From Kitasatospora phosalacinea (GTDB taxonomy: Bacteria; Actinomycetota; Actinomycetes; Streptomycetales; Streptomycetaceae): a DNA stretch of 64,000 nucleotides. The notes beneath the pieces were generated by a model. That model worked only from the letters and a program-made list of their open reading frames with translations, was not told the DNA's origin and did no database searches. Below, piece by piece: positions 31,185 through 36,204 of the stretch. The DNA lies in NCBI RefSeq assembly GCF_000717185.1, contig NZ_JNYE01000001.1:124001-188000 (forward strand). Reading direction: 5' to 3'. Position numbers and translations under genes: made by a program. How positions within the stretch are numbered: position 1 is the first letter of the stretch; each line of letters opens with the position of its first letter.

Positions 31185-34064
<2,880 letters not shown>

Positions 34065-34115
34065 GGTCCTTCAAGCTCCATCGTCATCAGTCAGCGAACA
34101 GGCCGTAGAAAGCAG

Positions 34116-34136
34116 AAAACCCCTCCGCAGGAGGGG
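34116..34136 (-). terminator. Attenuator terminator in the leuS leader
   Basis: On the minus strand CCCCTCC, three bases and GGAGGGG form a seven-base stem followed by TTTT and CTGCTTTCT. It lies between the leader peptide and leuS, in the place of an attenuator. A GAGGG at 34155-34159 can pair with CCCTC at 34131-34135 and thus open the stem. Confidence 0.75.
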
Positions 34137-34172
34137 ACGCCACGCCGACTCCGGCCCTCGAGCCGGTCCTGG

Positions 34173-34211
34173 TCAGCGCGGCCGGCTAAGAAGCAGGCGC
34201 ACAGTTCGCAT
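34173..34211 (-). CDS. leuS leader peptide (three consecutive Leu codons)
   Basis: A 12-residue open frame, MRTVRLLLSRPR, on the minus strand contains CTG-CTT-CTT; CTT is a rare codon in high-GC actinobacteria. Upstream, TACCCT lies six bases before the ATG, as in leaderless transcripts, though no good -35 is evident. An AGCCGG directly after the Leu codons can pair with CCGGCT downstream; a ribosome stalled on the Leu codons would cover it and favour the GAGGG/CCCTC antiterminator. That is the logic of ribosome-mediated attenuation as known for amino-acid biosynthetic genes of actinobacteria. The role here is inferred from sequence. Confidence 0.75.
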   Translation of the reverse strand: MRTVRLLLSRPR

Positions 34212-34280: not shown

Positions 34281-35573
34281 CTACGCCTCCGCGCGCATCG
34301 CGGCATCGAAGTCCCGCAGGGCCCGCGCCACCCGGGCCGACTGCATGCCCGCCGCGAGCAGCCGCGCCCGGTCCGCGGTCCGTTCGGCCTCGGCCCGCTC
34401 GCCGGTGCGGCGGTAGGAATCGGCGAGGCGCACCATCAACAGCGCCTTGGCCCGGGCCCGTTCCACCGAGAGCGAGTCGATCGAGGACAGCAGCAGGCTG
34501 CGCGCCTGCCCGTGCTCGCCGAGCAGCAGGTACCCCTCGCCGACCATGCCCTCCAGATCGGCCCGCTCCTGCCCGTGCCCCGCCACGCCCTCCAACTCCC
34601 GGAACGCCCGCTCGGCGACGGCCTCCGCGCTGATCTGCTCCCCCTTGCGGCCGTGCGCCCGGGCGATCCGCCCCAACTGCAGGGCCCGCTCGCGCGGCGT
34701 CAGCACGGCGTCCGCGGCGCGCAGCGCGGTGGAGAGCATCGCCACCGGGTCGAGCCCCCGCCCGCCGGAGTTGTACGTCGCCTGGACGGCGAGGCAGCCC
34801 ACCACGCCGACGCCGAGCCGCGGGTCGCCCGAGACGTGCGCGGCCCGCAGCGCGGCGACGAAGGCCCGCTGCGCGGCGGCGTCGTTGCCCATGTCGTAGT
34901 TGGCCCAGCCGACCAGCCGGGCCAGTCGGCTGGCCGCCCCGTACAGTTCGCGGCCGAGCGGTTCGTCGTAGCTGCCGAGTTCCAACAGCTTTCCCACCAT
35001 GGCGAGTTCGGCCTTGGCGAGGTCGAGGATCAGGCCACCGCCGTAGGTGCGTTCCAGTCGCTGCTTGGAGTCGTAGGACAGCCGCAGGTCGGCCAGCTGC
35101 TCGGGGGCGATCCGCAGCGCCCCCTCGCCACCGGTGACCGGCGGGGGCGGGGAGGCCCAGTGCCGGGCCGCCTGTTCCAGCTCGTCGCCGCGGAACAGGT
35201 CGGTCAGGCGGACGGGGGCGCCGTCGGCGCCCGCCTCGCGGAGCGCGGTCTGCGCGGTGTCGGCGGTCCACGGGTCGGTCAGTAGCCGGGGCGAGAGCAT
35301 CTTCGCCCCCCGGCGGGAGCCCATCTGCCCCCAGAGCTGCTCGTAGGTGACGGCGATGCCGACGCTGCGGCCCAGCACCTCGCAGACGGTCTGGTCGTGC
35401 GGCGAACGCGGCACCATGCCCCGGTCGCGCCACTTGTACGGTGCGGTGGAACTGATCGCCATGCCGCCCGGGAGCACCGCGTTCACCTCGCGGGCCAGCC
35501 GCTCCGGGCTCCAGCCGAGCTGGTGGAGTATCCGGGCGAGTTCGTCGTTCCGTTTTCGCACCAGGTCGGCCAT
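34281..35573 (-). CDS. Helix-turn-helix / TPR-like regulatory protein
   Basis: This is a 430-residue protein of a Streptomyces-typical family. The N-terminal 80 residues resemble a plasmid- or Xre-type helix-turn-helix (ILHQLGWSPERLAREVNAVL, then APYKWRDRGMVPRSPHDQTV), and the rest is helical repeats like tetratricopeptides (LYGAASRLARLVGWANYDMG, LGRIARAHGRKGEQISAEAV). No sensor or kinase domain is evident. The start is ATG at 35571-35573. It lies between tRNA-Ala genes and the leuS attenuator; regulation and target are unknown. Confidence 0.82.
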   Translation of the reverse strand: MADLVRKRNDELARILHQLGWSPERLAREVNAVLPGGMAISSTAPYKWRDRGMVPRSPHDQTVCEVLGRSVGIAVTYEQLWGQMGSRRGAKMLSPRLLTDPWTADTAQTALREAGADGAPVRLTDLFRGDELEQAARHWASPPPPVTGGEGALRIAPEQLADLRLSYDSKQRLERTYGGGLILDLAKAELAMVGKLLELGSYDEPLGRELYGAASRLARLVGWANYDMGNDAAAQRAFVAALRAAHVSGDPRLGVGVVGCLAVQATYNSGGRGLDPVAMLSTALRAADAVLTPRERALQLGRIARAHGRKGEQISAEAVAERAFRELEGVAGHGQERADLEGMVGEGYLLLGEHGQARSLLLSSIDSLSVERARAKALLMVRLADSYRRTGERAEAERTADRARLLAAGMQSARVARALRDFDAAMRAEA

Positions 35574-35658: not shown

Positions 35659-35665
35659 ACTGCTG

Positions 35666-35738
35666 TGGAGCTAAGGAGAATCGAACTCCTGACCTATTGC
35701 ATGCCATGCAATCGCTCTACCAACTGAGCTATAGCCCC
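35666..35738 (-). tRNA. tRNA-Ala (GGC), third copy in transcription order
   Basis: A 73-base cloverleaf: acceptor GGGGCTA pairs with TAGCTCC, and the anticodon stem ATTGC/GCAAT encloses the loop ATGGCAT, giving anticodon GGC (Ala). The discriminator base is A. The CCA end is not encoded. The gene is identical to the copies at 36021 and 36132. It is followed by a hairpin terminator at 35627-35658. Confidence 0.97.
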
Positions 35739-35978
35739 ATGCTGTTACTGCTGTCACCTGCGGTTTCCCTCGGCGACATCGCCAACTGTACACGGTCGGC
35801 GCCCCCTGCCCTAATCCGTTCCGAGGCCCCGCAGGACCCCGAGCCGCCGCGGACCGCGCGGGCCGGCGGAACCCCGCACCCGCCCGAACGAGACCCCGAT
35901 CCCGCCGACCGGGCAGGATCCCGGGCAGGATCCCGGGCCCGTCCGCGGAGCGTCCGCGAGAACACCCGAAAACACCGA

Positions 35979-36007
35979 AGGCCGCCACCCTCTTCGGGTA
36001 ACGGCCT
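35979..36007 (-). terminator. Hairpin between the second and third tRNA-Ala genes
   Basis: Six-base arms AGGCCG (35979-35984) and CGGCCT (36002-36007), with a further ACCC/GGGT pairing inside. It resembles the terminator after the last copy and may process or partly end transcription. The rest of the 282-base spacer 35739-36020 holds no gene. Confidence 0.5.
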
Positions 36008-36020
36008 CGCGGAACTGCTG

Positions 36021-36093
36021 TGGAGCTAAGGAGAATCGAACTCCTGACCTATTGCATGCCATGCAATCGCTCTACCAACTGAGCTATAGCCCC
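36021..36093 (-). tRNA. tRNA-Ala (GGC), second copy in transcription order
   Basis: This is identical to the copies at 35666 and 36132 over all 73 bases, including anticodon GGC. The CCA end is not encoded. It shares the flank TGCTG just downstream with the third copy, so the two look like a recent duplication. Confidence 0.97.
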
Positions 36094-36131
36094 GCGACAC
36101 TGACGACCACTCACGGACCACCGGTGCGGAG

Positions 36132-36204
36132 TGGAGCTAAGGAGAATCGAACTCCTGACCTATTGCATGCCATGCAATCGCTCTACCAACTGAGCTATAG
36201 CCCC
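36132..36204 (-). tRNA. tRNA-Ala (GGC), first copy in transcription order
   Basis: This is identical to the other two tRNA-Ala(GGC) genes. It is nearest the promoter at 36265-36294 and separated from the second copy by only 38 bases, so the cluster is probably one primary transcript. Confidence 0.97.

What the first reader, a model, noticed from the sequence alone, without database searches (positions are those of the whole stretch)
34116..34211. Leucine leader peptide and attenuator in front of leuS
The leuS leader holds a 12-residue frame, MRTVRLLLSRPR, with three consecutive Leu codons (CTG-CTT-CTT, two of them rare), then an intrinsic terminator stem (34120-34136) with a T-run before leuS. 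AGCCGG directly after the Leu codons can pair with CCGGCT, and GAGGG (34155-34159) can pair with CCCTC (34131-34135), opening the terminator. Ribosome-mediated attenuation is known for amino-acid biosynthesis in actinobacteria; a leucyl-tRNA synthetase controlled this way would sense charged tRNA-Leu directly. TACCCT six bases before the ATG hints at a leaderless transcript.
Basis: partly seen in the sequence, partly recalled or inferred. Interest (0 to 1): 0.8.

Follow-up and report, generated by a model that had tools for sequence, protein, structure and literature searches.

The report
Leucine-sensing switch before leuS gene

Summary
On the minus strand a 12-codon ORF (34211-34173, MRTVRLLLSRPR, Leu codons CTG CTT CTT) is followed by an intrinsic terminator (34136-34120) before leuS. 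It is in print: predicted for S. avermitilis and S. coelicolor (2005), and the S. lividans leader MRAVRLLLSEPR was reported leaderless (2021). All 130 leuS upstream regions I examined in the family carry it, with a -10 box 6-7 nt before the start codon and CTT as last Leu codon. The conserved partner is another helix, stem A: the leader's last codons plus stop codon (34182-34172) pair with 34149-34139. It covaries, starts 5 nt after the last Leu codon and lies within 2 nt of the terminator in 128 of 130. Covariance models find this kind of element in 156 of 296 class genomes: before two LeuS types, and, in hits sampled, before cimA, leuA and ilvB with matching codons. No base-sharing antiterminator is conserved. 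Stem A, held or melted by the ribosome and abutting the terminator, is probably the switch. Leucine response is untested.

The parts
31185..34064 (-). leuS, leucyl-tRNA synthetase (959 aa)
   Evidence: TIGR00396 887.9 bits, cut-off 548.4; the only full-length match in the genome, the two others being stretches of 62 and 55 residues
34217..34228 (-). -10 region TGCGGTACCCTG; TACCCT (34223-34218) ends 6 nt before the leader ATG, so the transcript is probably leaderless
   Evidence: -10 box ends 6 nt (127) or 7 nt (3) before the start codon in 130 of 130; position; S. lividans homologue reported leaderless (PMC8079986)
34173..34211 (-). leader ORF MRTVRLLLSRPR
   Evidence: leader present in 130 of 130 family regions (two with GTG start, one with Leu-Val-Leu)
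34188..34196 (-). regulatory Leu codons CTG CTT CTT; last codon is CTT in 130 of 130
   Evidence: CTT 53 and CTC 5 of 58 in the class-wide alignment
34172..34182 (-). stem A, 5' arm (last base of codon 10, codons 11-12, stop codon, next base)
   Evidence: 10 of 10 core pairs kept in 130 of 130; covariation
34139..34149 (-). stem A, 3' arm
34151..34166 (-). hairpin inside the loop of stem A (variable; absent where the loop is short)
   Evidence: 5 of its 6 pairs show double changes, with gaps in 8-10 of 37 rows
34137..34138 (-). two-base spacer between stem A and terminator core
   Evidence: 2 nt in 117 and 1 nt in 13 of 130
34120..34136 (-). intrinsic terminator CCCCTCC-TGC-GGAGGGG
   Evidence: CCCCTC..GAGGGG core in 130 of 130
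34107..34119 (-). U-rich tract
   Evidence: 5-8 T in the 9 bases after the hairpin in 130 of 130
34126..34144 (-). candidate weak antiterminator, helix B: CGTGG (34144-34140) with CTGCG (34130-34126)
   Evidence: 5-6 contiguous pairs in 142 of 208, no covariation; P 0.12 here, above 0.5 in 41 of 130: not supported

Best explanation
It is a ribosome-mediated transcription attenuator of leuS. Shown: a leader ORF with Leu codons, a covarying hairpin (stem A) that starts 5 nt after the last Leu codon and contains the leader's last codons and stop codon, and an intrinsic terminator within about 2 nt after stem A. Inferred: with enough Leu-tRNA the ribosome runs to the stop codon and melts stem A, the terminator folds and transcription stops before leuS. 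When Leu-tRNA is short the ribosome waits on the Leu codons (above all the last, CTT), stem A stays folded, and the terminator fails. The last step is the least sure. Stem A and the terminator share no bases, so I propose that stem A, abutting the terminator, keeps it from closing in the RNA exit channel of RNA polymerase (about 0.4). A weak base-sharing antiterminator, or an effect through pausing at the conserved UG in the terminator loop, are the alternatives.
For: 130 of 130 family regions carry leader, -10 box at 6-7 nt, CTT as last Leu codon, stem A and terminator. Stem A keeps all 10 core pairs in 130 of 130, against 20-59% of cells when slid by 1-3 nt. Class-wide alignment of 58: 11 of 17 pairs with double changes, 56 such cells against 11.4 shuffled, 0 of 500 shuffles as high. 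79 of 80 fetched hits outside the family lie before leuS; the 80th contig ends too early. With no limit on position, the strongest helix before the terminator ends -2 to 2 nt from it in 128 of 130 family, 77 of 78 class and 20 of 20 secondary sequences, while the stem A loop varies from 10 to 37 nt in the family and 3 to 43 in the class. Distance from the end of stem A to the U of the loop UG is 10 in 125 and 9 in 5 of 130. The same layout stands before cimA, leuA and ilvB with matching codons. The S. lividans leader is reported leaderless (PMC8079986).
Against: No test of leucine response exists here. Thermodynamics does not show switching: mean terminator probability is 0.96-0.99 in the stalled and ribosome-free states and, against the model, lowest with the ribosome at the stop codon (0.919; below 0.5 in 6 of 130 there, 2 without ribosome, 2 at Leu8, 0 at Leu6 and Leu7). 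Whole-leader folding is no better than shuffles. PMC8355165 (passages) argues that clusters of neighbouring hairpins are as effective as one strong hairpin in causing termination and that hairpins form outside the exit channel, both against abutment. In S. coelicolor, changing the ilvB leader codons had no effect on regulation (Craster 1999, as told in PMC1262725).
Confidence: 0.85

Rival explanations
1. Textbook trp-type attenuator: stem A is the 1:2 pause hairpin, and a stalled ribosome frees its 3' strand to form a base-sharing 2:3 antiterminator with the terminator (helix B, GYGYGG with CUGYGY).
For: Helix B can form 5-6 contiguous pairs in 142 of 208 sequences; the spacing from stem A to the loop UG is 9-10 nt in 130 of 130, which fits both a pause hairpin and helix B.
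Against: No covariation: 4.74 of 6 pairs with true partners, 4.70 +/- 0.11 with partners swapped between families or genera. P above 0.5 in only 41 of 130 and 0.12 in the window; partial-transcript MFE mean -3.9 against -10.2 kcal/mol for the terminator. Other competitors of the terminator 5' arm (4 bp or more) are not shared: among the up to 4 members per genus printed, none in g4 (1), g7 (4), g8 (1), g12 (3), g17 (1) and in 3 of 4 of g10, while those of g1, g3, g5, g6, g9 and g13 have various 4-5 bp ones at differing places.
Confidence: 0.25
2. One reading: AGCCGG pairs with CCGGCT, and GAGGG pairs with CCCTC to open the terminator.
For: The letters are present in the window and 5 pairs GAGGG/CCCTC can form there.
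Against: AGCCGG-type pairing in 29 of 130, all in the window's genus; GAGGG in the loop in 6 of 130.
Confidence: 0.03
3. The leader is translated constitutively and the terminator only sets a fixed fraction of read-through, so leuS level is tuned without sensing leucine.
For: No response has been measured here; S. coelicolor ilvB regulation was reported unaffected by leader codon changes (Craster 1999, as told in PMC1262725).
Against: Cognate codons are conserved (rare CTT as last codon in 130 of 130), and at other genes the codons change with the pathway: Ile at cimA, Leu at leuA, Leu/Val/Ile at ilvB.
Confidence: 0.07

Closest known systems
leuS attenuator of S. avermitilis and S. coelicolor (Seliverstov 2005, PMC1262725; passages and part 1 of 3 of the text seen) and LeuL2 of S. 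lividans TK24 (PMC8079986; passages seen)
   Same: Same gene, same leader (MRAVRLLLSEPR is the leader of 21 of my 130 regions), leaderless, terminator with U-run; predicted as a classical attenuator with antiterminator and terminator
   Different: Only 'some Streptomyces' named; figures are not held, so their Figure 4 antiterminator could not be compared. Class-wide spread, second LeuS type, abutting geometry and lack of a base-sharing antiterminator are not in what I saw
ilvBNC 'fast attenuator' of Corynebacterium glutamicum (PMC11857589; passages seen) and the ilvB-II motif (PMC10272879; passages seen)
   Same: BCAA leader starting one nucleotide from the transcript start, antiterminator hairpin near the control codons with its base adjacent to the terminator base
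   Different: There antiterminator and terminator overlap by a GCC trinucleotide; here they abut without sharing bases
ilvB1NC attenuator of Mycobacterium tuberculosis (PMC13236596; passages seen)
   Same: BCAA codons, stop codon whose ribosome masks the antiterminator, terminator supported by reporters
   Different: Other gene, 166-nt leader; antiterminator described there as mutually exclusive with the terminator
E. coli trp and pheST attenuators (recalled; pheST also named in PMC1262725)
   Same: Ribosome stalling decides between hairpins; pheST is also an aminoacyl-tRNA synthetase operon
   Different: They use a base-sharing 2:3 antiterminator (recalled)

Membership tests
Ribosome-mediated transcription attenuator | Short ORF with codons for the cognate amino acid before the gene | tested here: met
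   130 of 130 family regions, 2-3 Leu codons; translation itself not tested
Ribosome-mediated transcription attenuator | Intrinsic terminator between leader ORF and gene | tested here: met
   sequence only; termination itself not tested
Ribosome-mediated transcription attenuator | Conserved hairpin overlapping the end of the leader ORF, so that ribosome position controls it | tested here: met
   stem A holds the stop codon
Ribosome-mediated transcription attenuator | Response to shortage of the charged tRNA | not testable with these tools
   needs a reporter or 3'-end sequencing
trp-type attenuator with base-sharing antiterminator | Conserved antiterminator sharing bases with the terminator | tested here: not met
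'Fast attenuator' (C. glutamicum ilvBNC) | Antiterminator and terminator bases adjacent | tested here: met
   1-2 nt to the terminator core in 130 of 130; position-free check: -2 to 2 nt in 128 of 130 and in 77 of 78 class hits
'Fast attenuator' (C. glutamicum ilvBNC) | Boundary trinucleotide shared by both hairpins | tested here: not met
   no overlap of stem A with the terminator core in 130 of 130; overlap of 1-2 nt at most in 5 of 78 class hits
T-box or other described RNA family (Rfam 15) | Covariance model match at gathering score | tested here: not met
   only three tRNAs in the window; with E up to 10 one chance match on the plus strand at 33986-34016, inside leuS

The most novel reading that the evidence does not exclude
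Actinobacteria use one widespread attenuator type for leuS, cimA, leuA and ilvB in which the antiterminator does not compete for bases: a translation-sensitive hairpin placed 5 nt after the regulatory codon and about 0-2 nt before the terminator blocks terminator closure by abutment, so a stalled ribosome leaves the block in place and a running ribosome removes it.
Probability: 0.35. Interest if true: 0.65.

Novelty: already known. Interest (0 to 1): 0.38.

Why it matters
The leader would make an essential synthetase its own sensor of charged tRNA-Leu. The 2005 survey noted that actinobacterial attenuators often lack components; a conserved hairpin abutting the terminator, seen here before leuS, cimA, leuA and ilvB genes, gives one testable answer to what stands in for the antiterminator. 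The covariance models and alignments made here could be turned into an RNA family; Rfam 15 gave no match for the leader.

Tried and rejected
Base-sharing antiterminators: helices of 4 bp or more with the terminator 5' arm were listed for 130 sequences and printed for up to 4 per genus; helix B against the terminator loop was tested on 208 and 130: possible in many, no covariation. Ribosome-position ensembles gave no thermodynamic switch and a lower terminator probability at the stop codon, against the model. An RNA polymerase pause role for stem A (constant 9-10 nt to the loop UG) is kept as an idea; spacing alone cannot prove it. Rfam gave nothing for the leader. The main texts of RNA-seq/Term-seq papers on S. 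clavuligerus (PMC8269248) and S. coelicolor (PMC4681348) do not hold the word leuS. The Streptomyces ilvB leader was sought in the own genome by a degenerate pattern of the S. lividans IlvL peptide: no match, so its layout was not compared. R1 left 2 of 245 order genomes and R2 left 140 of 296 class genomes without a match; their leuS upstream regions were not read.

Rows and limits. The 60 non-genus family regions were picked by me, for spread of genera, out of 136 such genomes, from its capped list of matches (11 genera; none from g2, g11, g14, g15, g16). Of 97 R1 hits outside the family in the class, 80 were fetched and the 17 weakest not. Of these 80, two gave no terminator under my rule (L207, L209), leaving 78. 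The search looked for stem A only within 5 nt of the terminator, so its gap counts were partly set by the rule; one search repeats it without that limit and is the one to rely on (exceptions: L216 in the class, L079 and L081 in the family). In one search one stem (CTGCTT/GAGCGG, 6 bp) is probably misplaced. The 15 genomes of other families of the order that match R1, and R2 hits not fetched, were not checked for the gene behind them.

Full report
What is there. leuS lies on the minus strand at 31185-34064 (TIGR00396, 887.9 bits) and is the only full-length match in the genome. Reading towards it, a -10 box TGCGGTACCCTG (34228-34217; its TACCCT ends 6 nt before the ATG) precedes ATG (34211), a 12-codon frame MRTVRLLLSRPR ending in TGA at 34173, and a terminator at 34136-34120 with a U-rich tail. 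leuS itself uses CTG for all its 71 Leu codons; CTT makes up 1 of 175 Leu codons in leuS and two neighbouring genes, yet 2 of 3 in the leader.

Already in print. Seliverstov et al. 2005 (PMC1262725, passages and part 1 of 3 of the text seen) predicted classical attenuators before leuS in S. avermitilis and S. coelicolor. The reannotation of S. lividans TK24 (PMC8079986, passages seen) lists LeuL2, MRAVRLLLSEPR, as transcribed leaderless, followed by a hairpin and a U stretch. That peptide is the leader of 21 of my 130 family regions. Searches listed no further paper that, by its listing or the passages I opened, describes a leuS leader in actinobacteria; not every listed paper was opened, and the library holds only open-licence papers.

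Conservation. I took 130 leuS upstream regions: the window's own, 69 from the same genus and 60 from 11 other genera of the family. All 130 have the leader: 127 found by rule, 3 read by eye (two with GTG starts, one Leu-Val-Leu). The last Leu codon is CTT in 130 of 130, the -10 box ends 6 nt (127) or 7 nt (3) before the start codon, and the terminator core CCCCTC..GAGGGG is present in all. Within the genus the element is an island: mean pairwise identity 0.80 in the 22 nt before the start codon, 0.97 in the ORF and 0.85-0.88 around the terminator start, against 0.35-0.41 outside (600 random pairs, ungapped, so flanks are understated).

The real structure. The conserved helix is stem A: the last base of codon 10, codons 11-12, the stop codon and one further base (34182-34172) pair with 34149-34139. 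All ten core pairs are kept in 130 of 130, with GC changed to AU in 6 sequences; an eleventh pair forms in 124 and is UA instead of CG in 24. Slid partners pair at 20-59%. In a 37-sequence alignment 98.1% of cells pair over three helices (at most 50.9% when slid), 7 pairs have double changes and 0 of 500 shuffles reach the covariation score. Stem A ends 1-2 nt before the terminator core in 130 of 130, while its loop ranges from 10 to 37 nt.

Class-wide spread. A covariance model of the 37 sequences (R1) hits the own genome once, at leuS, 243 of 245 genomes of the order at E up to 0.001 and 122 of 296 of the class at E up to 0.1. I fetched 80 of the 97 class hits outside the family: 79 lie before leuS by tblastn, and the other contig ends too early to tell. 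The LeuS proteins behind them fall in two groups by best-segment identity to the window's: 37 at 62-78% and 41 at 30-40%, with one short match at 51% (counted by me from the rows). One genome (G397) has two LeuS matches, each with the leader; one of the two matches is in two pieces. Stem A changes by compensation (GCCGCGTCG/CGACGCGGC, GGCCGCACCGG/CCGGTGCGGCT, GCCACGTTGATC/GATCGACGTGGC). In a 58-sequence alignment 11 of 17 pairs have double changes, 56 cells against 11.4 shuffled. The codon ending 5 nt before stem A is CTT in 53 and CTC in 5 of 58. A second model (R2) finds 156 of 296 class genomes, 76 of 115 genera, at E up to 0.01, and 20 of 198 of the phylum, 12 of these in the window's class. 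Not all R2 hits are before leuS (next paragraph).

The same layout at other genes. Twenty further R2 hits were fetched. Two precede leuS (tblastn). Two were identified as citramalate synthase (TIGR00977: 450.1 and 445.6 bits on fragments, cut-off 450), one as leuA (NF002086, 583 bits, cut-off 532) and two best match acetolactate synthase large subunit, as fragments below the full-length cut-offs. By their translations ten more look like cimA, one like leuA and one like ilvB; one was not assigned. The leader codons change with the gene: Ile (ATT/ATC) at cimA, Leu at leuA, Leu/Val/Ile at ilvB. The papers listed do not, by their listings, describe a cimA leader; they were not all opened.

Abutment of the two hairpins. 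With the position of the upstream helix left free, the strongest helix ends -2 to 2 nt from the terminator in 128 of 130 family regions, 77 of 78 class hits and 20 of 20 secondary hits. The exceptions are L079, L081 and L216. The terminator is here taken with all its outer pairs, so the gap is often 0.

How it most likely works. The logic of position is that of an attenuator: a ribosome that reaches the stop codon sits on the 5' arm of stem A and must melt it, whereas a ribosome waiting on the last Leu codon can leave it, since stem A starts 5 nt after that codon (the spacing of frameshift-stimulating hairpins; recalled). Stem A should therefore be the antiterminator. What is odd is that it shares no bases with the terminator. 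With the ribosome placed at Leu6, Leu7, Leu8, the stop codon, or absent, the terminator keeps a mean probability of 0.985, 0.984, 0.973, 0.919 and 0.961: no switch, and the lowest value at the stop codon goes against the model. A base-sharing alternative, helix B, is possible in 142 of 208 sequences but does not covary and is weak. I therefore favour abutment: with stem A closed right against it, the terminator cannot close inside the exit channel of RNA polymerase. Support by analogy: in C. glutamicum ilvBNC the antiterminator and terminator hairpins are adjacent and overlap by only three bases, with mutational evidence for the terminator (PMC11857589, passages seen). Against: a genome survey argues that contiguous hairpins promote termination and that hairpins form outside the channel (PMC8355165, passages seen). 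A constant 9-10 nt from stem A to the UG in the terminator loop would also suit an RNA polymerase pause.

Verdict. The finding is real, and in Streptomyces it was known. New here, as far as the named searches go, are the conserved structure as counted, the class-wide distribution before two LeuS types, and the shared abutting layout at cimA, leuA and ilvB genes. The leucine response and the abutment step are untested.

Noticed in passing
L233-L238, L240, L241, L244-L247: Leaders with tandem Ile codons and the same abutting stem A plus terminator stand before citramalate synthase (cimA)-like genes in other actinobacteria (two identified with TIGR00977, ten by their translation).
   Followed up: partly
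L239, L251 (leuA); L242, L250, L252 (ilvB): The same layout with Leu or Leu/Val/Ile codons before leuA-like and ilvB-like genes (L239, L242 and L250 by NCBIfam, L251 and L252 by translation).
   Followed up: partly
L159 and L202 (genome G397): Two different LeuS matches in one genome, each with its own leucine leader and attenuator.
   Followed up: no
window 35665-36204, minus strand: Three tRNA-Ala (GGC) genes in a row with equal Rfam scores, near leuS.
   Followed up: no
window 34281-35573, minus strand: The gene just upstream of leuS encodes an NsdA-family TPR-like regulator (NF053720).
   Followed up: no
L197, L200, L213, L224, L226: Variants in which the leader stops (TAG) at the base of stem A, with stem A re-formed by compensatory changes; useful natural tests of stop codon position.
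   Followed up: no
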